Shown here: positions 40,531 through 50,606 of the stretch, one piece after another
Position numbering within the stretch: the first letter of the stretch is position 1
Layout of the letters: each line of letters opens with the position of its first letter
Origin: Candidatus Aphodovivens excrementavium
GTDB taxonomy: Bacteria; Actinomycetota; Coriobacteriia; Coriobacteriales; Eggerthellaceae
NCBI GenBank assembly: GCA_018715935.1
Contig: DVKR01000002.1
Span: 1-62,610, forward strand
Length of the DNA: 62,610 nucleotides
Direction of reading: 5' to 3'
Notes under the pieces: generated by a model
The model's database searches: none
The model's input: the letters and a program-made list of their open reading frames with translations, nothing else
Told to the model about the DNA's origin: nothing
Program-made: the position numbers and the translations under genes

Positions 40531-40590
40531 GGAAGGGGATGCCGCGTGCTGGAGACTACGACGCGCGGCTACGGTGAAAGGAGAAGCGCG

Positions 40591-41319
40591 ATGGAGTTGA
40601 TTATCGCCTCAAACTACGACGAGATGAGCCGTTTGGCCGCCGATAAGATAGCGCTCTGCTTGAAGGACAAGCCCGAATGCGTATTGGGTCTGGCAACGGG
40701 CTCGACCCCAATTGGACTGTATGCCCAGTTGGTAGAAGATTTCCAGAATGGCAAGATCAGCTTTGCCCGCGCCACCACGTTCAATCTCGATGAATATCGT
40801 GGGCTAGACCCCCAGCACAACCAAAGCTACCGGTATTTTATGCAGAAGAACTTGTTCGACCATGTGGACGTAGAACTTGAAAAAACTCATGTTCCTGATG
40901 GTGCGAACTCCGATGCCCAAGCGGCCTGCGATGCCTACGAAAAAGGGATCGAGGAAGCGGGCGGCATCGACCTGCAGCTTCTCGGTCTTGGGCACAACGG
41001 CCACATCGGATTCAACGAGCCCGATGATTCGTTCCCGGTTGGCACCCATGTGGTCGATTTGACGGAAAGCACCATCAATGCAAACAGCCGTCTGTTCGAC
41101 TCTATTGACGAGGTTCCTCGCCAGGCATACACCATGGGCGTAGGCACCATCATGAAGGCTCGGAGCATTCTTGTGGTTGCAAGCGGTGCCGACAAGGCCC
41201 AAATCGTTCGCGACGCGTTCTTCGGGCCGGTTACGCCGCAGGTCCCTGCTTCCGTTCTTCAGCTTCATCCTGATGTGACGGTCATCGTTGATGCCGAGGC
41301 AGGGTCGCTATGCGCATAG
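40591..41319 (+). CDS. nagB: Glucosamine-6-phosphate deaminase
   Basis: A 242-residue enzyme making fructose-6-phosphate and ammonia from glucosamine-6-phosphate. LATGSTPIGLYAQL, TTFNLDEYRGL and LGLGHNGHIGFNEP hold the active-site Asp and His residues. AAAGGAGA at 40578-40585 supports ATG 40591. The C-terminus is short, without the extended allosteric segment of the E. coli enzyme. It overlaps nagA by ten bases, so the pair is coupled. Confidence 0.95.
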   Translation: MELIIASNYDEMSRLAADKIALCLKDKPECVLGLATGSTPIGLYAQLVEDFQNGKISFARATTFNLDEYRGLDPQHNQSYRYFMQKNLFDHVDVELEKTHVPDGANSDAQAACDAYEKGIEEAGGIDLQLLGLGHNGHIGFNEPDDSFPVGTHVVDLTESTINANSRLFDSIDEVPRQAYTMGVGTIMKARSILVVASGADKAQIVRDAFFGPVTPQVPASVLQLHPDVTVIVDAEAGSLCA

Positions 41320-42455
41320 TTGGCGGCAAGGTATTTGCGGGTGGCTCGTTTAAACAGGCATGCCTGCGCCTTGAAGGCGACCGCATAGCCGACGTTGCGC
41401 TTGCAAGCGAGGCGTTAGGCAGCCAGGCGCTTGACGACGACGTGCTGGATGCGAGCGGGTGCTATGTTGTCCCTGGGTTCATCGACATTCATTTTCATGG
41501 ATGCAAGGGAGCCGATGCGTGCGACGCAACCGATGAGGCACTTCATACGATTGCGTCGCACGAGGCGTCTTGTGGCGTAACGGCAATTTGCCCCGCCACG
41601 ATGACCTACCCTGAACAAAGGCTCGCCTCAATTGCGCGCATCGCGGCGTCGTTTGCGCCGTCAGATGCCGAGGCTGCCTTGGTCGGGCTGAATCTTGAAG
41701 GCCCGTTTATTTCCCCCGATAAAGTGGGAGCGCAAAATCCGGCTTACGTTCAACGAGCCGATGCGGCTATGCTGCGACGTCTTCAAGAGCAGGCGCGCGG
41801 CTTGGTTAAGCTGGTGGATATCGCCCCCGAAGAACCCGGGGCGCTTGATTTCGTGTCAGAGGTGTCGGATGAAGTTCGCGTGTCGCTGGCGCATACGTGC
41901 ACCGATTACGACTGCGCACGAGAGGCTTTCGACCGGGGCGCGCGACATCTCACGCATCTCTACAATGCGATGCCGGGTCTCCATCATCGCAAACCTGGTC
42001 CCATCGCGGCAGCATGGGAGCGCTCTGATGCCACCGTAGAGCTTATTTGCGATGGAATCCACGTCCATGGAGCTATGGCGCGCCTGACGTTCGGCCTGTT
42101 CGGCGCAGAGCGCATCTGCTTGATAAGCGACTCCATGCGTGCGTGCGGCTTAGAGGATGGCACATACGATCTTGGAGGCCAGGACGTGACGGTGCAGGGC
42201 AGGTTGGCGACGCTGGAAAGTGGAACGATTGCAGGTTCGGTGACCAATCTTGCTGCCTGCGTGCAGCATGCGATATGCGAGATGGGAATAGCCCCTGAGC
42301 AGGCGATTGCTGCTGCCACTTTGACACCTGCTCGAGCTATCGGCATCGATGGCCAGCGCGGGTCGCTTGACGCCGGCAAGGTGGCTGATGTCGTCGTGCT
42401 GGATAAGAACTTCTGCGTGAAGCACGTTGTTCTTCGCGGCAAGCAGATTCGCTAA
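41310..42455 (+). CDS. nagA: N-acetylglucosamine-6-phosphate deacetylase
   Basis: A 381-residue amidohydrolase that removes acetate to give the substrate of NagB. Metal and active-site motifs: DIHFHGCKG near residue 52, NLEGPFIS near 126, LAHTCTDYD near 190, HLYNAMPGLHHRKPG near 213, and SDSMRACG near 272 with the catalytic Asp. The length is typical. It ends at a bidirectional terminator facing the nan operon. Confidence 0.95.
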   Translation: MRIVGGKVFAGGSFKQACLRLEGDRIADVALASEALGSQALDDDVLDASGCYVVPGFIDIHFHGCKGADACDATDEALHTIASHEASCGVTAICPATMTYPEQRLASIARIAASFAPSDAEAALVGLNLEGPFISPDKVGAQNPAYVQRADAAMLRRLQEQARGLVKLVDIAPEEPGALDFVSEVSDEVRVSLAHTCTDYDCAREAFDRGARHLTHLYNAMPGLHHRKPGPIAAAWERSDATVELICDGIHVHGAMARLTFGLFGAERICLISDSMRACGLEDGTYDLGGQDVTVQGRLATLESGTIAGSVTNLAACVQHAICEMGIAPEQAIAAATLTPARAIGIDGQRGSLDAGKVADVVVLDKNFCVKHVVLRGKQIR

Positions 42456-42460
42456 ACAGC

Positions 42461-42508
42461 TCAAAGGGCGCCGAGGTGCGCGTGCGTTTGCGCATCGGCG
42501 CCCTTTGA
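42461..42508. terminator. Bidirectional terminator between nagA and nanE
   Basis: TCAAAGGGCGCCGA (42461-42474) is perfectly complementary to TCGGCGCCCTTTGA (42495-42508), with a nested TGCGC/GCGCA stem in the loop. AAAG/CTTT ends give short T-runs on both strands between the convergent genes. Confidence 0.85.
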
Positions 42509-42524
42509 AAACGCAGGGTAGAGT

Positions 42525-43199
42525 TTATGCAATGGCGTTTGCGAACCAGCTGGTGATGCTTGTGGGGTGCGTGATCGCCGTTCCCACCACGATAGAGAAG
42601 GCGCCGGCATCAATTGCCGCCTTCGCATCGTCAAGCGTGTGAATGCGGCCTTCGCAAAACACCGGAATGCCGTGTGGCTTGGCGGCCGCAACGGCATCGC
42701 GCAAGAACTCAAGATCCGGGCCGTCTGTTTTGGGGCGGGCGTCTGTGTATCCGGCAAGGGTAGTGCTCACGATGTCCACCCGCGCGTCCAAAGCGCGCCT
42801 GACGTCTTCCATGCACGAGCAGTCTGCCATTACCAACGTTTCTCCGCGTAATGCTTCCACCGTCTCTTCAAAGGTTCGACCATCGGGGCGTGGGCGTCCA
42901 GTGGCGTCAAGGGCAACCACGTCTGCGCCGGCGGATATACAGGCGCGTGCATGACGCAAGGTCGGGGTGATATACACGCCCTCATGCCCCTCTTTCCAAA
43001 GCCCGATAACCGGAATTTCCACCCTTCCCTTGATAGCTGCGATATCAGAGAGTCCTTGGCAGCGAATTGCGGCAGCCCCGCCCAACTCGGCGGCTCGGGC
43101 AATCTGTGCCATGGTTTCGGGATGGCGCATCGGCTCGCCCATGTAGGCCTGACAGCTCACGATGAGCTTGCCTTCAAGTGACGTGATGAGAGGGTTCAT
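42525..43199 (-). CDS. nanE: N-acetylmannosamine-6-phosphate 2-epimerase
   Basis: A 224-residue TIM-barrel enzyme converting ManNAc-6-phosphate to GlcNAc-6-phosphate. VIGLWKEGHEGVYITPT carries the catalytic lysine; VVALDATGRPRP, MADCSCMED and STTLAGYTD are conserved. ATG at 43199 follows AAGGAG on its strand. Last gene of the nanA-nanK-nanE operon; its product feeds convergent nagA-nagB. Confidence 0.95.
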   Translation of the reverse strand: MNPLITSLEGKLIVSCQAYMGEPMRHPETMAQIARAAELGGAAAIRCQGLSDIAAIKGRVEIPVIGLWKEGHEGVYITPTLRHARACISAGADVVALDATGRPRPDGRTFEETVEALRGETLVMADCSCMEDVRRALDARVDIVSTTLAGYTDARPKTDGPDLEFLRDAVAAAKPHGIPVFCEGRIHTLDDAKAAIDAGAFSIVVGTAITHPTSITSWFANAIA

Positions 43200-43282
43200 G
43201 ATTCGCTCCTTCTGCAAATTGATACACGGCAATCGTAGATGCAAAGCTTCACTGGCAGCGGGAGGCAAGCCGTCTCTTGCCG

Positions 43283-44251
43283 TCAGTGAAGTAAAGAAAG
43301 CCTGTCGAGCAAAAATACGGTAGCACCCAACAGGGGGGCATCGCCTCCAAGTTCGGCATCCACAATGGGAAGTTTGGCCTGAACGGGCGAGATGCGCTCG
43401 GCAAACCCGCGGTCCACCTCGTCGCGCCACAACTTGCCCGCCTTTGCAACCGATCCCGAGAGCACTACAAGGTCGGGGTCGAGCATGTTTGTCCATCCGG
43501 CAAGCGAGACTCCCAAAGCAAAGCCTGCTTGCTTGATGATGCTGCGGGCCGCTTCCTCGCCTTCTTGGGCGGCGGCGGATATTTGCGCGCCTGTGAGCGA
43601 TCTGCCGGTATAGGCGCGATAGCAGGCCTCAATGCCGCTGCCCGCCGCAACCGCCTCCAAATCAACGATGCCTGGGCCTGCACCCAACGTGCACGACCCC
43701 AGGGGATTGGGAGTGCAGCCTACCTCGCCGGCAAACCCGTGGTGCCCGCGTAAGATAGACCCGTGTGTGATGATGCCGCTTCCCAGCCCAGTGCCCACAG
43801 CGATCACCATGCAGGTCTGCGCGCCGCGACCGGCTCCCCAGCGAGCCTCTCCGAGAGCGTGTGCCTGCACGTCGTTAAGCACGGCGGCAGGAATGCTGCA
43901 GGCGTCTTCCAGGGCGGCTTTAACGGGCTGTCCGGTCCAGCCGGGCATGATCTCATTGGCGTAGGAGATGCTGCCGTCGTGGGCGTCCACACGCCCTGCG
44001 CTTGACACACCAATGCCCGCGAGCGGCAGCTCGGTCGAGCGGGAGAGCTCGCATGCCAGCGAAACGACGTCTGCGAGCACGGCTTTCCCGCCGCGAGAGG
44101 CGTTGGTGGGAATGGTTTTGCGGGAAACAATGCGCGGAAGCGCTTCCTCGTCGTGAACGAGCACCGCGCCGGCGATTTTCGTACCGCCGATGTCCAATGC
44201 CAACGATGCCTGCGGCGAAGCGCAGGCATCGGTTGAAACGTTGCAGCTCAT
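43283..44251 (-). CDS. nanK: ROK-family sugar kinase, probable N-acetylmannosamine kinase
   Basis: A 322-residue ROK kinase placed between nanA and nanE, so most likely it phosphorylates ManNAc. ALDIGGTKIAGAVL, VGTGLGSGIITHG and GHHGFAGEVG are the phosphate, sugar and catalytic regions. The usual zinc motif CxCGxxGC is degenerate: the aligned stretch reads CTLGAGPGIVDLEA, keeping only the first cysteine. Start at 44251 has a weak ribosome-binding site and lies 16 bases after the nanA stop, suggesting coupling. Glucokinase activity cannot be excluded from sequence. Confidence 0.8.
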   Translation of the reverse strand: MSCNVSTDACASPQASLALDIGGTKIAGAVLVHDEEALPRIVSRKTIPTNASRGGKAVLADVVSLACELSRSTELPLAGIGVSSAGRVDAHDGSISYANEIMPGWTGQPVKAALEDACSIPAAVLNDVQAHALGEARWGAGRGAQTCMVIAVGTGLGSGIITHGSILRGHHGFAGEVGCTPNPLGSCTLGAGPGIVDLEAVAAGSGIEACYRAYTGRSLTGAQISAAAQEGEEAARSIIKQAGFALGVSLAGWTNMLDPDLVVLSGSVAKAGKLWRDEVDRGFAERISPVQAKLPIVDAELGGDAPLLGATVFLLDRLSLLH

Positions 44252-44267
44252 TGATGTTGTCCGTTTG

Positions 44268-45197
44268 CTATTCTTCGGGAAGCATGCCCTCGGCAACGAG
44301 GATGGCGCGAATGGCTTCCACGTCTTCACCTTCAAGTGCCTGAACAGGCTCGCGCATTTGGTTGGTGTTGAATACGCCCATCTGCCACAGGGCGGTCTTG
44401 AACGCGCCCACGCCGGCGCCGAAGCCGACGGTTGCCTTAACCTTGCGGGTCACAAACATCAGGCGGGCAAGGTGGTCTTGGAGACGCTTGACCTCGTCCC
44501 AATCGCCCGCCTGGAAGGCACGCCATTGGGCTACATAGCCATCGGGGTCGACGTTGGCGAGGCCGGGAACCGAGCCGTCGGCACCGGCGAGATACGCACC
44601 GTCTACGCACACCTCGTGACCGGTGAGCAGTTGAAGCGGATGACCGGCGTCTTCGTTTTCAATAACCAGCCAACGGAACGATACGTCGTCGCCAGAAGAG
44701 TCTTTCACGCCTTGGATGACGCCGTCTTTGCCTAAGGTTACCAGCATGGTGGGGTCGAGCTTGGTATGCACGCACACGGGCAGGTCATAGGCGAAAAGCG
44801 GCAGATCGGTGTGCTCGCGAATGGCGCGGAAGTGGCGCTCGGTTTCCTTAGGGCCGCCCAACGCGTAGAACGGAGCGGTGGCAACGATTGCGTCAACCCC
44901 GAACCCTTTTGCTCGCTTTGCCTGGTCGACAACGCGCATGGTTTCCATGTCGATGATGCCGGCAAGCACAGGCACGCGATGGTTTACGATGGCAACCGCC
45001 TCTTGCAGCACGTGATAGCGCTGCGCGTCGGTGAGAAACGCGACCTCGCCAGACGACCCCAGAAAAAACAGGCCGTCTACGCCGGCGTTGATCATGCGGT
45101 TAATGGAACGCTCCAACGATTCAAGATCCAGGTGTCTATCGGCGGTTAGCGGGATAACTACCGGGGGGATGACACCGCGAAACGGCGAATCTGACAT
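44268..45197 (-). CDS. nanA: DHDPS/NAL-family aldolase, probable N-acetylneuraminate lyase
   Basis: A 309-residue class I aldolase. GLFFLGSSGEVAFLTD near residue 40, LFAYDLPVCVHT with the catalytic tyrosine near 133, and GVKDSSGDD with the Schiff-base lysine near 160 define the family. The motifs do not by themselves separate sialate lyase from 2-keto-3-deoxygluconate or dihydrodipicolinate enzymes; the nanK and nanE neighbours decide for sialate lyase. ATG at 45197 follows AGAAGGGA. First gene of its operon. Confidence 0.78.
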   Translation of the reverse strand: MSDSPFRGVIPPVVIPLTADRHLDLESLERSINRMINAGVDGLFFLGSSGEVAFLTDAQRYHVLQEAVAIVNHRVPVLAGIIDMETMRVVDQAKRAKGFGVDAIVATAPFYALGGPKETERHFRAIREHTDLPLFAYDLPVCVHTKLDPTMLVTLGKDGVIQGVKDSSGDDVSFRWLVIENEDAGHPLQLLTGHEVCVDGAYLAGADGSVPGLANVDPDGYVAQWRAFQAGDWDEVKRLQDHLARLMFVTRKVKATVGFGAGVGAFKTALWQMGVFNTNQMREPVQALEGEDVEAIRAILVAEGMLPEE

Positions 45198-45241
45198 GAG
45201 ATGTGTCCCTTCTAATTCAGGTTGAATCCAAATGTCAGACA

Positions 45242-45270
45242 AGCGTAAACCGCTGATAATCATCCGTCAA
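45242..45270 (-). promoter_or_regulatory. Putative nan operon promoter
   Basis: On the minus strand, TTGACG (45265-45270) and TACGCT (45242-45247) are 17 bases apart. The -10 is weak. A short inverted repeat ATTCA-ACC-TGAAT lies between it and nanA. No terminator of the upstream ABC operon is seen, so read-through is possible. Confidence 0.4.
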
Positions 45271-45315
45271 CGCAAACTGCTGAAACCGCAGATGAACTCG
45301 AAAATGTTTCACAAA

Positions 45316-46149
45316 TCAGGCGGGCTTTTTCATGAGCTCTTTCAAGAAGCGCCCACACCCGCAGCTCTTCTTTGCCAAAGGGACGCACGTGCACCCAGTT
45401 CGTCCGTCCCCCAAATCGACGCGCTCTACGCGTACGTCGATGCCGTAGATCGTCCGCATGGTGTCTGGGGTAATGACCTCATGCGGCCGTCCGTTGGCGA
45501 GCACGGTTCCCTCGTGAAGCACGATAACGCGGTCGGCACAGTAAAACGCATGCGCCGGGTCGTGGGTGACCATCAGCACCGACAGGCCGCTGTCAACCAA
45601 GCTTCTCATGCGCGACAGCACGAGTTGCTGATTTCCGAAATCAAGGCTGGCGGTCGGCTCGTCCATGATCAGAATGTCGGGTTGCTGCGTGAGGGCGCGC
45701 GCGATCAGCACTAGCTGTTGCTGTCCTCCTGACAGTTCGGTAAAGGTTCTGCCGGCGAGGTGCTGGATGGAAAGCTGGCATAGCGCCGCAAGTGCAATGC
45801 GATGGTCCTCTTTGGTGGTTGCCGAGAACCTGCCCATGTGCGGCGTTCTGCCCATAAGCACCATATCTTTCACTAGGAAGGGGAAGGGAAGCTGGTGCGT
45901 TTGAGGGATGTAGGCAAATCGCTTGGCGCGCTGTTTTTCCGAAAGGCGAAAGACGTCTTCCCCGTTAAGGGTGGCGTTGCCGCCCAGGGGAGCCAAGACG
46001 CCAAGAATCGTTTTCAAAAGGGTGGTCTTGCCACATCCGTTGGCGCCGATTATGCAGCCGAATTCTCCCTCCTCAAGAGAAAACGTCGCGTCATGGACTA
46101 TTTCGCTGCGCGGCCCGTATCCCGCACGCACGTGATTGATTTCCAGCAT
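45316..46149 (-). CDS. FecE/BtuD-type ABC importer ATPase with cysteine-rich tail
   Basis: A 277-residue ATPase: Walker A GANGCGKTT near residue 36, signature LSGGQQQLVLIARAL near 138, and ILIMDEPTASLD near 159. The last 30 residues are unusual, with CTC and CGCG groups (GCTCVPLAKKSCGCGRF) that could bind metal. It overlaps the permease gene by one base. With the permease and lipoprotein it forms a type II importer for siderophores, cobalamin, haem or molybdate-like cargo; the cargo is not determinable here. Confidence 0.88.
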   Translation of the reverse strand: MLEINHVRAGYGPRSEIVHDATFSLEEGEFGCIIGANGCGKTTLLKTILGVLAPLGGNATLNGEDVFRLSEKQRAKRFAYIPQTHQLPFPFLVKDMVLMGRTPHMGRFSATTKEDHRIALAALCQLSIQHLAGRTFTELSGGQQQLVLIARALTQQPDILIMDEPTASLDFGNQQLVLSRMRSLVDSGLSVLMVTHDPAHAFYCADRVIVLHEGTVLANGRPHEVITPDTMRTIYGIDVRVERVDLGDGRTGCTCVPLAKKSCGCGRFLKELMKKPA

Positions 46150-47318
46150 TAGCTCCACCCCTTTGCGTTGTGATGGAAGATGATGGCGAAGAAAGGCACG
46201 CCAAGCACTGCCGTTAGGATGCCGATGGGTATCTCCATGCTCAGCAGACAGCGGGCCACGTCGTCGACAAGCAGCAGATAGACGCTTCCGAGCAGCATGC
46301 TGGTGGGCAGAAGGCGCCGATAGTTCGGCCCTACGATGGCGCGCGCCAGATGGGGGATGACAAGGCCGATCCACCCGATCACGCCCGATACCGCCACGGA
46401 AACCGAGGTCAGCAGAGTGGCCGCCGCAATCACCACGAAGCGCGTCCGGCGCGTATTGACGCCCAGCGAGCGCGCCTCCTCTTCGCCAAGCGAAAGCACG
46501 TTGAGCTTCCAGCGCTCTACCATCAGCAGCACAAAGCCCAAAAGCATCGGGATCACGGCAATGGTCAGATCGTCCATGTTGGCACCGGAGAAGCTGCCCA
46601 TCAGCCAATAGGTGATGGCGGGAAGCGTGTCGTTTTCGTCGGCGCATAGCTTGACGATAGAGGTGCCCGCCTGAAAGAGGGTAGACACCAAAATGCCGCC
46701 GAGCACCAATCCCAGCAGTCGGTCGTACTTAACCATGCGGTTTAGAAACATCGCCAGCCCCACGGCAAGCAGACCGCCAAGAAACGCAAATACCTGAGTG
46801 GCAACTACCGAAAAGCCCAAGAGCAGGCTCATGCACGCCCCCAAGCTTGCCCCCGCCGAAGCGCCCAGCAAATCGGGCGACACAAGCGGGTTGCGAAACA
46901 TTCCCTGGAAGGCGGCGCCTGCCGAGGCAAGGGCCGCGCCCACCAAGATGACCAGCAGAATGCGCGGGATGCGGATGCTGAAGATGATTTTGTCTACGCT
47001 TACTTCCTGTTGGGTTACTACCTCGCCGGCGAAGTGGCGCTGGATTCCCTCGAACAATTCAAGGGGAGTGACGGGGAACTGCCCGATCGCAAACGACAGC
47101 AAGATGGCGGCTGCCAGACCAATGACAAGAAGCACTTTCACCGCGAGGGGGACGCGGCTCGCAACCAAGCGCTCCGCTGCCGCGTCAAACTCCTTCTCGT
47201 CTGCCTTAACGAGGCGTTCGAATTCCTTTTCGTCTTCGTTGTGCTTCTCGCTCGTGTCGCCCGCGACGCTTTCGGAAAAAGCCGCAGGCGCGAGAGGGGT
47301 TTTCGCGCATTCTGCCAT
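46149..47318 (-). CDS. FecCD-family ABC importer permease
   Basis: A 389-residue permease with about ten membrane helices. IRIPRILLVILVGAALASAG and FQGMFRNPLVSPDLLGASAG are FecCD signatures, as is GVIGWIGLVIPHLARAIVGP. A charged, Glu-rich N-terminal extension of about 55 residues precedes the first helix; such an extension is unusual. The ribosome-binding site is weak. It follows the methyltransferase gene by 13 bases. Confidence 0.9.
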   Translation of the reverse strand: MAECAKTPLAPAAFSESVAGDTSEKHNEDEKEFERLVKADEKEFDAAAERLVASRVPLAVKVLLVIGLAAAILLSFAIGQFPVTPLELFEGIQRHFAGEVVTQQEVSVDKIIFSIRIPRILLVILVGAALASAGAAFQGMFRNPLVSPDLLGASAGASLGACMSLLLGFSVVATQVFAFLGGLLAVGLAMFLNRMVKYDRLLGLVLGGILVSTLFQAGTSIVKLCADENDTLPAITYWLMGSFSGANMDDLTIAVIPMLLGFVLLMVERWKLNVLSLGEEEARSLGVNTRRTRFVVIAAATLLTSVSVAVSGVIGWIGLVIPHLARAIVGPNYRRLLPTSMLLGSVYLLLVDDVARCLLSMEIPIGILTAVLGVPFFAIIFHHNAKGWS

Positions 47319-47331
47319 AGCCCAGCAACCT

Positions 47332-48114
47332 CTAGAGATCCCACGAAATGAACGCCCACTGCACGGTTAGGTTGTAATCGAGGACAAAGCGCTCCTCTCC
47401 CTCTTGCTCAACCATTTTGAAGTGCTCTTGGGCGTAGGCGTCGAACAGCTGTCGCTCTTGCTCGGACAAAGGCTCGCTTCCGGTCATCTTTTCAAGCTCC
47501 ATGCAGGCGGTTTCGAGCGAATCGAAGTTCATGGGCCGCGGTGCGGGAATGTAGGAAACGCGGGGATAGCGCCCTTTCTCGGCCAAGACGGAGAAAGCCT
47601 TCACGTCGAGTCGGCGGGTGGGGACGCTGCGCCCGAGGTAGGCGCACAGCTTGGGTTCGTAGGCAGGCGTTGCGGTGGCGGGCACGGTGATGGCAGCCTT
47701 TTTCCGCGCCACCCATTCAAGCTTGTTAAGGTACGTTCCGATATCGTCGAAAGAGATCGAGCGAGACGCCACGGCAACGTCTACGCACTTCGGCTCGATC
47801 CCGCATTCTTCCCAGGCGTCTTCCCATGCCATGAGTTTCGTTTGGATGGGAAGATCTTCTTCTTTGGCTCGAGAAGACAAGATTTCGATCATGTTGGGGG
47901 AGAAGTCGCAGGCGAGCACGGAATGGCCTTGGCGGGCGAGCGGAAGGGCAAGCGTTCCGGTTGCGCATCCCATGTCGAACACCGAGTCGCCATCGTCAAG
48001 GGCAAGGCGCTCGATGAACGCGGTGGCGTAGGGGCTTTTCCCGCAGGTAGAGCCAAACGTTGCTGCACGGCGCTGCCAGTACGTGCGCGACTCTTCGGAT
48101 GCATCGTTAGCCAT
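47332..48114 (-). CDS. Class I SAM-dependent methyltransferase within the ABC operon
   Basis: A 260-residue Rossmann-fold methyltransferase: VFDMGCATGTLALPLA near residue 40 is motif I, and VLACDFSPNMIEIL gives the acidic ribose-binding residue. GGAGG precedes ATG 48114. It lies between the binding-protein and permease genes in the same operon, so it should act on the imported compound, a cofactor derived from it, or the chelator. The target is unknown. Confidence 0.8.
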   Translation of the reverse strand: MANDASEESRTYWQRRAATFGSTCGKSPYATAFIERLALDDGDSVFDMGCATGTLALPLARQGHSVLACDFSPNMIEILSSRAKEEDLPIQTKLMAWEDAWEECGIEPKCVDVAVASRSISFDDIGTYLNKLEWVARKKAAITVPATATPAYEPKLCAYLGRSVPTRRLDVKAFSVLAEKGRYPRVSYIPAPRPMNFDSLETACMELEKMTGSEPLSEQERQLFDAYAQEHFKMVEQEGEERFVLDYNLTVQWAFISWDL

Positions 48115-48134
48115 GATGTGTTCCTCCTATGGGC

Positions 48135-48166
48135 GCGGCCGATGCCGGAAAACAAGCATCGGCCGC
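48135..48166 (-). promoter_or_regulatory. Stem-loop between binding-protein and methyltransferase genes
   Basis: GCGGCCGATGC (48135-48145) pairs perfectly with GCATCGGCCGC (48156-48166). Lacking a T-run, it probably protects the upstream binding-protein mRNA from 3' decay or attenuates downstream genes. Confidence 0.55.
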
Positions 48167-48217
48167 AGATAATCGAACCGTTAGATGGGTGGTCTTCCTA
48201 CGAATGCGAAGTGCTGC

Positions 48218-49375
48218 TTATGCCTCTTCGTCAAGGAACAGGATGCTCTTTGCCTCGTCGTCGGTCAGGTCGACGGAGAAGAACAGGCTGTAGAAGTTCT
48301 TCGTTTCCTCGATCATGTCAACGTCGTATACGTCGGGGTACAGCTTGTTCGCCAGCCACTGCATGCCGATGTAGCGCGTTACCGACGGAGGACGGTCGCC
48401 CCACATGAAGGGCACGCAGGGGATGGTGTAGACCCGATCGTTTGCCACGGCGTCGATGCTTTCCCAGTCGGAGCTGGTGCGAATCAGGTCGTCGGCGCCG
48501 CCGCGCTCGGTGTCGTCCCAGGCGATGATTACCTCGGGGTTCCAGGCGATAACGTTCTCAAGGGAAACTTGGGTCATGCCGCCTCCGGTAGCGCCTCCGT
48601 TGGAATTGTCGATATCGGCAACGTTTTTCGCACCTGCCTCAAGGAAGGTGGTGAAATGGTTCGAGCTTGCGGGCTCGGTTTTCAGGCCGTCGGGCCCCTC
48701 TGCGTAGTAGACGGTCGTGCGCTCCTCTTCAGGGATAGACGCTACCGCTTCAGACACCTCGGTGTACACATTTTCCAGATAAGATGCCATCTCTTCGGCG
48801 CGGTCTGCCTGGCCGAGCACAGCACCGATGGAGCGATAGGTGTCGGGGGTCTTTTCAACTGAGCCGTTGAACAGCAGTACCGGAATGCCCGTTTGCTCTT
48901 GCAGGGCGTCGGCGTTGTCGATGTCCAATTGCGTGATGTCGGCTTGAGCAACGTTGAGGATCACCTGAACGCCTGCCGCCATGATGGCCTCGGTGTTGAG
49001 TGTGCCGCCGTTTGCCATGGTGCCATAGCTGGGGAGGTCGGCGACGTTGTCGGGTAGATATTGCAATTGGGAATCGGTGTAGTCGGAGTTTGCGCCTGCC
49101 GCCTTTTCGGGAGCCAAGGTGAACAGATACAGCTCGGAAATGGGGCTGGTGCAGTAAATGCTCGTCAAGTTATCGCCAGCGGGAATGGTGTTCTCGCGCC
49201 CGGCATCGTCGGTAACCGTCTGCTCGGTTGCCTGTTCGGTTTGTTCGGTGGAAGGCGCCTGGTCTCCCCCCGACCCTTCAGAGCCACCTCCCGAGCATCC
49301 TGTAGCCAGGAAGGGGACAGACAGTGCGAGCGCTGCAGTAACTGCAAAAGCACACACCTTTCTTTTTGCGCGCAT
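48218..49375 (-). CDS. Metal-chelate ABC importer substrate-binding lipoprotein
   Basis: A 385-residue Peripla_BP_2-type protein. A signal peptide ends in lipobox ATGC (FLATGCSGGG), followed by a Ser/Gln/Glu linker and TVTDDAGRENTIPAG, the start of the fold. Near the end, PFMWGDRPPSVTRYIGMQWL plus ANKLYPDVYD resembles the MolA-like and Fe-chelate branch of the family. AAAGGAGAGG precedes ATG 49375. First gene of the operon, behind a strong promoter. Confidence 0.88.
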   Translation of the reverse strand: MRAKRKVCAFAVTAALALSVPFLATGCSGGGSEGSGGDQAPSTEQTEQATEQTVTDDAGRENTIPAGDNLTSIYCTSPISELYLFTLAPEKAAGANSDYTDSQLQYLPDNVADLPSYGTMANGGTLNTEAIMAAGVQVILNVAQADITQLDIDNADALQEQTGIPVLLFNGSVEKTPDTYRSIGAVLGQADRAEEMASYLENVYTEVSEAVASIPEEERTTVYYAEGPDGLKTEPASSNHFTTFLEAGAKNVADIDNSNGGATGGGMTQVSLENVIAWNPEVIIAWDDTERGGADDLIRTSSDWESIDAVANDRVYTIPCVPFMWGDRPPSVTRYIGMQWLANKLYPDVYDVDMIEETKNFYSLFFSVDLTDDEAKSILFLDEEA

Positions 49376-49414
49376 TACCTCTCCTTTCGCTTGTACGGAA
49401 TGAGCACTGGAAAA

Positions 49415-49443
49415 ATTGTAGTCATATGCAAATATTCTGTAAA
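49415..49443 (-). promoter_or_regulatory. Promoter of the metal-chelate ABC operon
   Basis: On the minus strand, TTTACA (49438-49443) and TACAAT (49415-49420) are separated by exactly 17 bases; each matches consensus at five of six positions. Confidence 0.75.
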
Positions 49444-49451
49444 GAGAATAT
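49432..49451. promoter_or_regulatory. Inverted repeat overlapping the -35, candidate operator
   Basis: ATATTCT (49432-49438) and AGAATAT (49445-49451) are perfect inverted repeats six bases apart and cover the -35 hexamer. A repressor bound here would block transcription. The sequence does not match Fur, PerR or DtxR consensus sites well. Confidence 0.5.
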
Positions 49452-49464
49452 ATTTTTAGGAATA

Positions 49465-49511
49465 GAAAAAAGAAAAAAATCCCCCCGACCGTATCGTGCA
49501 GTCGGGGGGAT
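49465..49511 (-). terminator. Terminator of the peptide-type ABC operon
   Basis: ATCCCCCCGAC (49479-49489) pairs with GTCGGGGGGAT (49501-49511). Read on the minus strand, the stem is followed by TTTTTTTCTTTTTT. It ends the ATPase transcript just before the next promoter. Confidence 0.9.
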
Positions 49512-49571
49512 GATTCCGATCAAGCGATGCGAGCGCCAGATGCGGCGCTTCAGGCTGCGTGGCTGCGCCTC

Positions 49572-50606
49572 CTACTTGCCCAAATCGGGGTGAAGCAGGG
49601 AAGGAGCGGCGCCCAAAAGCAAGCGCGTGTAATCGTCCTTGGGGTTATTGAACACCTCTTCTGCCGTTCCGCGCTCTACCGCCTGGCCTTTGTTCATCAC
49701 GATGATGCGGTCGGAGATATAGCGCACGGTTTGGATGTCGTGGCTGATGAACACCATCGCCAAGCCAAGGTCTTTCTTCAGGTCCATCAACAGGTTCAGA
49801 ATTTGGGCGCGAACCGAAACGTCAAGCGCCGAGGTGGGCTCGTCGGCGATGATGGCGTCGGGCTCCAGCGACAGGGCGCGGGCGATTGCCACGCGTTGAC
49901 GCTGGCCGCCAGAGAGCTGTCCGGGCAGCGCGTCAAGGGCGGAGGAGGGCAGGCCGACCATGCCGATGAGCTCCTGTACGCGCTTCTCGCGCGATACCTT
50001 GTCGCCGACCTTGTGCACCAGCATCGGATCCATCAGCTGATCGTGGATGGTCATGCGGGCGTTCAGCGCCGTGGCGGGATCCTGGAACACCACCGAGATA
50101 ACACGACCGATGTGACGACGTTGCGCGGCGGTGCGCTTGGTGACGTCTTCGCCTTTGAAGTAGACCTTGCCCGAGGTGGGAGCCTGAAGGCCGCACATCA
50201 CGTTTGCCGTAGTGGACTTTCCGCAGCCCGACTCGCCTACAATGCCAAGCGTTTGGCCGGGCATAAGGCGAAGCGTCAGACCCTGTACCGCATGCACGAT
50301 ATTGGGGTGAAGCAGCGAGCCTGTGCGCGTCTTGAAGTCGACGCGAATGTCGTCCAGAAAGATGATGGGCATCACGCCGTTGATGGCGCCGCCGGGCTCA
50401 GAGGGAGGCTTAACGCCTTCCGCCTCGTCGGCCGCTGCAGCCGCCGCTGCGGCGGCGCTCAAATCGGCGCCGTCTTCAAGACGGGATTGCTGGGCTGCCT
50501 CGTCGGCGCGGTCTTCTGAGGTAACGGTGTCGGATGCCGCCGCAGCAGCATCGGAGAGGGCGGCCTCAGCGGCCGCGTCTACTTTACGCGGATCGAGTTC
50601 GCTCAT
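49572..50606 (-). CDS. Peptide/nickel-type ABC importer ATPase (DppF/OppF-like)
   Basis: A 344-residue ATPase. The first 75 residues are an Ala/Glu/Asp-rich, low-complexity extension absent from most homologues. The ATPase core follows: GESGCGKSTTANVMCG near residue 123, LSGGQRQRVAIARAL, and IIADEPTSALDVSV. The core lacks a clear C-terminal oligopeptide-ATPase extension. It overlaps the fused permease-ATPase gene by four bases (ATGA) and so is translationally coupled. Confidence 0.9.
   Translation of the reverse strand: MSELDPRKVDAAAEAALSDAAAAASDTVTSEDRADEAAQQSRLEDGADLSAAAAAAAAADEAEGVKPPSEPGGAINGVMPIIFLDDIRVDFKTRTGSLLHPNIVHAVQGLTLRLMPGQTLGIVGESGCGKSTTANVMCGLQAPTSGKVYFKGEDVTKRTAAQRRHIGRVISVVFQDPATALNARMTIHDQLMDPMLVHKVGDKVSREKRVQELIGMVGLPSSALDALPGQLSGGQRQRVAIARALSLEPDAIIADEPTSALDVSVRAQILNLLMDLKKDLGLAMVFISHDIQTVRYISDRIIVMNKGQAVERGTAEEVFNNPKDDYTRLLLGAAPSLLHPDLGK

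What the first reader, a model, noticed from the sequence alone, without database searches (positions are those of the whole stretch)
45316..49451. Metal-chelate importer operon with an embedded methyltransferase
Binding protein, methyltransferase, permease and ATPase are ordered in one tight operon (13-base and one-base junctions). The ATPase has a cysteine-rich tail and the permease a long acidic N-terminus. Together these suggest that import is linked to modification of the cargo or chelator, a combination I cannot assign to a known system.
Basis: partly seen in the sequence, partly recalled or inferred. Interest (0 to 1): 0.55.

Follow-up and report, generated by a model that had tools for sequence, protein, structure and literature searches.

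The report
Molybdenum-type importer operon with methyltransferase
A bacterium of the family Eggerthellaceae carries a four-gene metal importer whose built-in methyltransferase belongs to a family that repeatedly sits with molybdenum genes in distant bacteria, including many E. coli, which points to an uncharacterised step in how cells acquire molybdenum or tungsten.

Summary
In detail: binding protein, class I methyltransferase (MT), FecCD permease and ATPase form one minus-strand operon. The permease's closest solved relative is MolB of the H. influenzae molybdate importer (228 bits; hemin 166, BtuC 138). Relatives of the MT recur beside the same importer type in Actinomycetota, Pseudomonadota and Desulfobacterota: FecCD within 3 kb in 9 of 29 loci outside the window's family, against 0 of 54 generic-MT control loci. 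Several of these loci also hold molybdenum genes (MoeA, DUF364, ModD, NifQ). The five beta/gamma-proteobacterial operons seen each carry an E. coli-type ModE box before the first gene. In E. coli the MT is in 2094 of 5426 complete genomes. Best reading: a molybdenum (or tungsten) importer whose MT works on the organic ligand or cofactor in the cytosol. The metal is well supported for the family and inferred for the window; the MT's substrate is unknown. Against: no ModE box at the window, the genome also has ModABC, and most Eggerthellaceae copies examined are standalone. Known importer kind, new variant; the combination was not described in the papers my searches listed.

The parts
48218..49375 (-). 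Substrate-binding protein (Peripla_BP_2), in the group that includes 4pag and MolA; lipoprotein-type signal read by eye
   Evidence: Pfam; phmmer 4pag 150 bits, HI_1472 MolA 50 bits; model Z 35.6 to 4pag, 26.9 to MolA 3psa
47332..48114 (-). Class I SAM-dependent methyltransferase of the molybdenum-linked family
   Evidence: Pfam Methyltransf_25; model pLDDT 88; fold matches class I methyltransferases, Z up to 20; family alignment with invariant W97, W101, R118 and W258
46149..47318 (-). FecCD-type permease, closest solved relative MolB (HI1471)
   Evidence: Pfam FecCD 297 bits; 228 bits to 2nq2 MolB against 166 hemin and 138 BtuC
45316..46149 (-). ABC ATPase with Cys-containing C-terminal tail
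   Evidence: Pfam ABC_tran; tail comparison
48135..48167 (-). Intercistronic hairpin between SBP and MT genes
   Evidence: sequence; RNA fold of the gap, z -2.68
49415..49443 (-). Promoter-like site TTTACA-17-TACAAT before the operon
   Evidence: consensus scan, 10 of 12 matches; 3 such sites found in the region against 1.8 expected by chance
49432..49451 (.). Inverted repeat ATATTC-N8-GAATAT overlapping the -35 element, possible operator; not an E. coli-type ModE box
   Evidence: found only in the window among the 10 sources listed in that script; no ModE box at 45000-50000 with up to one mismatch

Best explanation
The operon encodes a FecCD-family ABC importer of the MolB branch that brings a molybdenum (or tungsten) species into the cell, plus a soluble class I methyltransferase from a family specialised for handling that cargo. 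The SBP binds the cargo outside, the permease and ATPase import it (standard for the family, not tested here). In the cytosol the MT methylates an organic partner, either the ligand of an imported chelate so that the metal is freed, or a pterin-type molecule that receives the metal, and the metal passes to MoeA for cofactor synthesis. Shown by sequence: the operon, homology to MolB, recurrent linkage of importer, MT and molybdenum genes, ModE boxes on the beta/gamma-proteobacterial versions. Inferred: the ligand of this SBP, the MT substrate, the order of events. My odds: importer-MT functional link 0.85; metal is Mo or W in the window 0.65; MT acts on ligand or pterin 0.35. The figure below is for the reading as a whole without the exact MT substrate.
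For: Permease closest to MolB, 62 bits over the next solved type; the E. coli permease of the homologous operon likewise (223 against 171 bits). In genus g44 of the same family two loci read SBP-MT-FecCD-ATPase-MoeA-MoeA-DUF364 (L033, L035) and a third FecCD-ATPase-SBP-MT-MoeA-DUF364 (L034). E. coli: SBP-FecCD-ATPase-MT-ModD-TonB receptor, ModD 504 bits; MT in 2094 of 5426 genomes. Thiobacillus: TonB receptor, YqeB-like/NifQ protein, SBP, FecCD, ATPase, NTPase, MT. Clostridiales L062: MT overlaps DUF364 by 4 bases, divergent from MoaA, MoCF/MOSC, ModAB-type and MoaC genes. MT precedes MoeA on the same strand, 61-1131 bases between the matched segments, in at least 16 of 119 MT-positive Eggerthellaceae genomes, including all 12 of genus g41 (coordinates). 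ModE boxes CGNTAT-N12-ATANCG upstream of 5 of 5 beta/gamma operons; 1 hit in the other 2.15 Mb held; mononucleotide shuffles of the upstream regions hit in 1 to 7 of 20000; consensus quoted in PMC545781. FecCD within 3 kb: 9 of 29 against 0 of 54 controls, Fisher p 3e-5; a molybdenum gene within 8 kb: 7 of 29 against 2 of 54, p 0.008.
Against: No E. coli-type ModE box near the window operon, nor an exact one in the five Desulfobacterota operons. The window genome already has a ModABC-type system and a second ModA, and this is its only FecCD permease over the cut-off, so a B12, heme or iron role is not excluded. I see no molybdenum gene beside the window operon itself (reading frames, by eye). 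In structure the SBP is nearer to 4pag, an iron-annotated SBP (4hn9) and an unnamed one (4ovk) than to MolA. Of 16 Eggerthellaceae loci taken before their context was seen, only 2 have FecCD within 8 kb. 19 of the 29 loci outside the family have no FecCD within 8 kb. Two congeners of the window (G017, G018) show only the standalone-like MT by identity. Four genomes have MT without MoeA and 14 have MoeA without MT. No substrate is known for any member.
Confidence: 0.55

Rival explanations
1. An ordinary iron-siderophore, heme or corrinoid importer; the methyltransferase is a passenger that landed in the operon.
For: It is the genome's only FecCD importer over the cut-off. The best NCBIfam names are BtuC and F420-0 permease, far under cut-off. 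The SBP model is closer to one iron-annotated SBP (4hn9, Z 29.5) than to MolA (26.9). The MT's top NCBIfam name is corrinoid-associated CpaM, 45 bits against a cut-off of 180.
Against: Permease closest to MolB; importer-MT linkage in several phyla, often with molybdenum genes, and 0 of 54 within 3 kb in controls; ModE boxes on homologous operons.
Confidence: 0.2
2. A tungstate or vanadate importer rather than a molybdate one, with dedicated MoeA paralogues in the g44 relatives inserting that metal.
For: Two MoeA-type proteins matched only by the MoeA_N and MoCF domains sit in the g44 operon L033; the genome has a ModABC-type system already; the DUF364 paper reports neighbours for tungstate and vanadium transport as well as molybdate and iron (PMC2954201, passages).
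Against: ModE boxes and ModD on the proteobacterial versions point to molybdate control. W or V enzymes were not sought here.
Confidence: 0.15
3. The methyltransferase has a general role (for example in nucleotide, RNA or quinone metabolism) and its position near molybdenum genes is secondary.
For: A relative is present in 119 of 138 genomes of the family, beside thyX in 13 of the 16 loci L154-L169; in Desulfobacterota several copies sit by mnmG or trmE. The fold is a common class I type close to UbiG, ChlM and many others.
Against: Standalone copies too sit by MoeA and MogA in genus g41, after a ModE-type regulator in L134 (88.8 bits, cut-off 98.5), and by DUF364. MT and MoeA presence correlate weakly over 138 genomes (both 115, MoeA only 14, MT only 4, neither 5; p 0.003), though completeness and ancestry confound this.
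Confidence: 0.2

Closest known systems
H. influenzae MolBC-A (HI1470-HI1472) molybdate importer
   Same: FecCD-type importer; its permease is the closest solved relative of the window permease and of the E. coli one; modD is listed nearby at HI1473 (PMC3928620, passages).
   Different: The published list HI1469-HI1475 names no methyltransferase; the window operon has no ModD beside it (ModD is on another contig); binding of molybdate by the window SBP is untested.
E. coli SBP-FecCD-ATPase-MT-ModD-TonB operon (for example NZ_CP028379 1501076-1507502)
   Same: Same four protein types in one operon.
   Different: Order differs (MT after the ATPase), ModD and a TonB receptor are added, and a ModE box precedes it. 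Its SBP is annotated as iron transport; no paper on it turned up in the searches made.
DUF364/DUF4213 'putative heavy-metal chelation' neighbourhoods
   Same: DUF364 proteins occur in the g44 operons and beside the window genome's second MT; the structure paper reports Mo, W, V and Fe transport neighbours (PMC2954201, passages).
   Different: The passages seen do not name this MT family as a neighbour; the window operon has no DUF364 gene in it.
4pag, solute-binding protein of Sulfurospirillum deleyianum
   Same: Closest solved SBP by sequence (150 bits) and structure (Z 35.6, rmsd 2.2, 317 aligned), sharing the PF-W-DRPPS segment.
   Different: Its ligand and role are not given by the tools.

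Membership tests
FecCD-type (type II) ABC importer | FecCD permease, Peripla_BP_2 binding protein and ABC ATPase in one operon | tested here: met
MolBCA molybdate/tungstate importer | permease nearer to MolB than to heme, B12 or hydroxamate permeases | tested here: met
   228 bits against 166, 162, 149 and 138, among solved structures only; no tree was made
MolBCA molybdate/tungstate importer | binding protein nearest to MolA | tested here: inconclusive
MolBCA molybdate/tungstate importer | binds and transports molybdate or tungstate | not testable with these tools
   needs binding and uptake assays
ModE-controlled operon (E. coli type) | ModE box CGNTAT-N12-ATANCG before the first gene | tested here: not met
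   none at the window operon even with one mismatch; met in L059, L061, L119, L120, L150
Class I SAM-dependent methyltransferase | Rossmann methyltransferase domain with glycine-rich SAM motif | tested here: met
   Pfam; DMGCATG motif; fold Z up to 20
CpaM corrinoid protein-associated methyltransferase (NF043040) | curated score cut-off of 180 bits | tested here: not met
   45 bits
Tellurite methyltransferase TehB | curated cut-offs (303 and 219.5 bits) | tested here: not met
   27.9 and 20.9 bits
Vitamin B12 importer permease BtuC | curated NCBIfam cut-offs (461 and 334 bits) | tested here: not met
   221 and 191 bits; such cut-offs can be tuned to a lineage, so this does not exclude a corrinoid cargo

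The most novel reading that the evidence does not exclude
Bacteria including many E. coli take up molybdenum as an organic chelate (a molybdophore, or shed molybdenum cofactor) through a ModE-controlled TonB receptor and a MolB-type importer, and a dedicated methyltransferase opens the chelate in the cytosol by methylating its donor oxygen or sulfur atoms, with ModD or DUF364 proteins finishing the ligand.
Probability: 0.22. Interest if true: 0.88.

Novelty: new variant of a known kind. Interest (0 to 1): 0.62.

Why it matters
Molybdenum uptake is usually described through ModABC (recalled). A conserved operon with a TonB receptor, a MolB-type importer, a methyltransferase and ModD under a ModE box implies that some bacteria take up molybdenum in a form too large for porins and process it inside. 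ModD and DUF364 carry no assigned reaction in the models met here; placing them with one methyltransferase family makes a testable pathway, in E. coli, where genetics is easy. For Eggerthellaceae, gut bacteria that I recall as relying heavily on molybdoenzymes, it gives a candidate route for metal supply.

Tried and rejected
Viral contigs: the MT query gave 4 pattern stretches and no relative. Rfam at the gathering threshold: only three tRNAs in the window. Conserved Cys-rich ATPase tail as a metal-binding device: only one Cys-Pro position is shared, and the beta/gamma-proteobacterial tails lack that motif; left unexplained. Acidic permease N-terminus: not conserved. Corrinoid-associated CpaM and TehB: far below cut-offs. 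Desulfovibrio-type ModE box (consensus in PMC545781) in the Desulfobacterota loci: only scattered hits with two or three mismatches. Shared operator between the window operon and the genome's ModA or ModD genes: the window's inverted repeat was not found there. The MT fold search is not diagnostic: ChlM, UbiG, the thiol S-methyltransferase TmtA and many others score about alike.

Counts and what was left out. The 29 loci outside Eggerthellaceae include a truncated MT (L063), a partial one (L064) and a broken one (L060); dropped were L130 (same place as L058) and L151-L153 (weak 113-118-bit hits; L152 does have SBP-FecCD-ATPase beside it, L151 a DUF364 about 7 kb away). The Eggerthellaceae sample of 21 contains L033 and L034, picked because they were embedded, and leaves out the window, L035 (near copy), L038-L057 other than L047's kind, that is all of L038-L057, and the short loci L004-L032; FecCD within 3 kb is 4 of 21 there, and of L154-L169 alone 1 of 16 within 3 kb and 2 of 16 within 8 kb. 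Control loci are the 54 weak hits L065-L118; several have short flanks; they gave FecCD 0 (3 kb) and 1 (8 kb), molybdenum genes 1 (3 kb) and 2 (8 kb). The query proteins came from the same loci that were counted, L062's molybdenum genes among them. Surveys: Clostridia 4 of 392 (seed plus three weak), class of Thiobacillus 2 of 370 (seed plus G690), phylum of the Geobacteraceae MAG 17 of 297 (seed included); at most the top 6 or 8 candidates per genome were scored, so these are lower bounds. The MoeA list was cut, so 16 MT-MoeA pairs is a lower bound. Fisher p-values ignore shared ancestry.

Papers: PMC2954201, PMC3928620, PMC4031551, PMC6515984, PMC545781 and PMC5484520 were seen as passages by term search; the ModE-site survey cited in PMC545781 (PMC317290) is not held and may already list some of these boxes. 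The combination of importer, MT and molybdenum genes was not described in the titles, abstract starts and passages seen from searches (open-licence papers only).

Full report
What is there. The minus strand of 45316-49375 encodes, in order of transcription, a substrate-binding protein (SBP; lipoprotein-type signal by eye), a 260-residue class I SAM methyltransferase (MT), a FecCD permease and an ABC ATPase. The MT-permease gap is 13 bases and the permease and ATPase frames share one base; the SBP-MT gap is 103 bases with a hairpin. A promoter-like site and an inverted repeat lie before the SBP, and a terminator-like hairpin on the upstream side. Downstream the neighbours are amino-sugar genes (DHDPS-type lyase, ROK kinase, NanE), with no visible link.

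Which importer. The permease's best solved relative is HI1471, MolB of the H. influenzae molybdate importer (228 bits), ahead of hemin (166, 162), hydroxamate (149) and B12 (138) permeases. MolBC-A takes up molybdate (PMC4031551, abstract start and passages).

Which methyltransferase. It is a class I enzyme by model and fold search with no named equivalent: the best NCBIfam names are far below cut-off. Aligned with 16 relatives from four phyla it keeps the SAM motif, a W-x3-W segment (W97, W101), a D-x4-SR segment (D112, S117, R118) and a C-terminal WA-x3-W. The window genome holds a second, standalone copy on contig C25, 1.1 kb from a DUF364/DUF4213 gene; ModD and a ModABC-type cluster lie on the same contig about 14 to 23 kb further on.

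Neighbours in the same family (Eggerthellaceae, judged from the titles of matching contigs). A relative of the MT is in 119 of 138 genomes. Three genomes of genus g44 carry the nearest relatives (48-53% identity; all others 42% or less), next to the same importer and to molybdenum genes: SBP-MT-FecCD-ATPase-MoeA-MoeA-DUF364 in L033 and L035, FecCD-ATPase-SBP-MT-MoeA-DUF364 in L034. In a tree of 42 MTs the window, L033 and L034 form a 100/100 clade, and the importer-linked label (14 rows) needs at least four changes, so linkage has been gained or lost repeatedly. Of the 16 loci L154-L169, 13 have thyX next to the MT, 12 of them divergent. In at least 16 of the 119 genomes the MT precedes MoeA on the same strand, with 61 to 1131 bases between the matched segments, including all 12 genomes of genus g41, 3 of 4 of g4 and 1 of g28 (coordinates). 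In L037, L050, L155 and L158 the thyX-MT pair is followed within about 8 kb by DUF364, FecCD, ATPase and SBP, in L037 and L155 also by MoeA.

Neighbours in other phyla. E. coli and Proteus (the latter unannotated, by tblastn): SBP, FecCD, ATPase, MT, ModD, TonB receptor. Thiobacillus L061: TonB receptor, a protein with YqeB-like and NifQ parts, SBP, FecCD, ATPase, NTPase, one further gene, MT. L059 (a betaproteobacterial MAG) and L150 (G690, drawn from the class of Thiobacillus): TonB receptor, DUF2478, SBP, FecCD, ATPase, MT. Desulfobacterota: importer beside the MT in L131, L136, L139 and L140 and within 8 kb in L135, four of the five with a TonB receptor; L134 has a ModE-type regulator just before the MT (88.8 bits, under the 98.5 cut-off). 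Clostridiales L062: DUF364 and MT overlapping by four bases, divergent from an NTPase, MoCF, MoaA, MOSC-MoCF, ModA-type, ModB-type, ABC ATPase, MoaC and SBP cluster. In E. coli the MT gene is found in 2094 of 5426 complete genomes; its operon was viewed in two records, and the ten listed hits all overlap modD.

Control. Taking loci that came in as MT-family hits, FecCD lies within 3 kb of the MT in 9 of 29 outside Eggerthellaceae, against 0 of 54 loci of other class I methyltransferases; within 8 kb 10 of 29 against 1 of 54. A molybdenum gene lies within 8 kb in 7 of 29 against 2 of 54 (Fisher p 3e-5, 7e-5 and 0.008, ignoring ancestry). What was left out of these counts is told under Tried and rejected; 19 of the 29 show no FecCD within 8 kb.

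Regulation. Inverted repeats seen upstream of the E. coli, Proteus and L150 operons match the E. coli ModE consensus ATCGNTATATA-N6-TATATANCGAT quoted in PMC545781 (passages). A scan of all 2.29 Mb then held (some loci overlap) for CGNTAT-N12-ATANCG gave eight hits: one before the first gene of each of the five beta/gamma-proteobacterial operons (L059, L061, L119, L120, L150), two more in L059 (one about 100 bases before a second SBP), and one in a control locus. Outside the operon loci the rate was 1 in 2.15 Mb, and shuffled upstream regions hit in 1 to 7 of 20000. No such box is near the window operon, and no exact one in the five Desulfobacterota operons.

Reading. The family-level link between this MT, a MolB-type importer and molybdenum genes rests on independent lines: homology, recurrent neighbours, operator sites. 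For the window the metal is inferred: I see no molybdenum gene beside its operon and it has no ModE box, the genome has a ModABC-type system, and this is its only FecCD permease over the cut-off, which leaves room for iron, heme or corrinoid. What the MT does is open. A TonB receptor in 9 of the 10 proteobacterial and Desulfobacterota operons suggests a cargo larger than a bare oxyanion, and ModD (a quinolinate phosphoribosyltransferase relative) and DUF364 (predicted to act in the synthesis of flavin- or pterin-like molecules, PMC2954201) suggest an organic partner. Methylation of donor atoms to release the metal, or of a pterin-type acceptor, are the two forms I think most likely.

Known or new. 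The importer is a known kind; the MT, its tie to molybdenum acquisition and the ModE-boxed TonB operon of E. coli were not described in what I saw from the ten searches listed, which cover open-licence papers only. The earlier survey of ModE sites (PMC317290, cited in PMC545781) could not be read and may list some of the boxes.

Noticed in passing
window 40546-45263: Amino-sugar genes flank the operon: glucosamine-6-phosphate isomerase-type and amidohydrolase (NagA-like) genes on the plus strand, NanE, ROK kinase and a DHDPS-type lyase on the minus strand (Pfam); looks like sialic acid use.
   Followed up: partly
   Followed up: partly
L130-L133 (genome G140, Geobacteraceae MAG): One genome carries five MT-family matches, two of them beside FecCD-type SBPs (L131, L132); paralogues may serve different cargoes.
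   Followed up: partly
L060 9899-10717 (Paenalcaligenes niemegkensis): An MT-family gene with two stop codons inside and no importer within 8 kb: a decaying copy.
   Followed up: no
window 45316-45420 and related ATPases: The ATPase C-terminus holds a C-[IVMF]-P motif in the Actinomycetota and Desulfobacterota loci compared; some beta/gamma-proteobacterial ones (L059, L119, L120) instead end with several His; possible metal contact or regulatory tail.
   Followed up: partly
L058 4397-13087: A glycyl radical enzyme and a radical SAM protein, an HTH regulator with a PBP_like domain resembling the end of some MoeA proteins, the MT, and what reads by eye as the start of a FecB-type SBP at the contig end (no Pfam hit on its 66 residues).
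   Followed up: partly
L154-L169: In 13 of these 16 Eggerthellaceae loci the standalone MT sits beside thyX (12 divergent, L162 on the same strand), in some with a flavin-reductase/rubredoxin gene near; the reason for the pairing is unknown.
   Followed up: no
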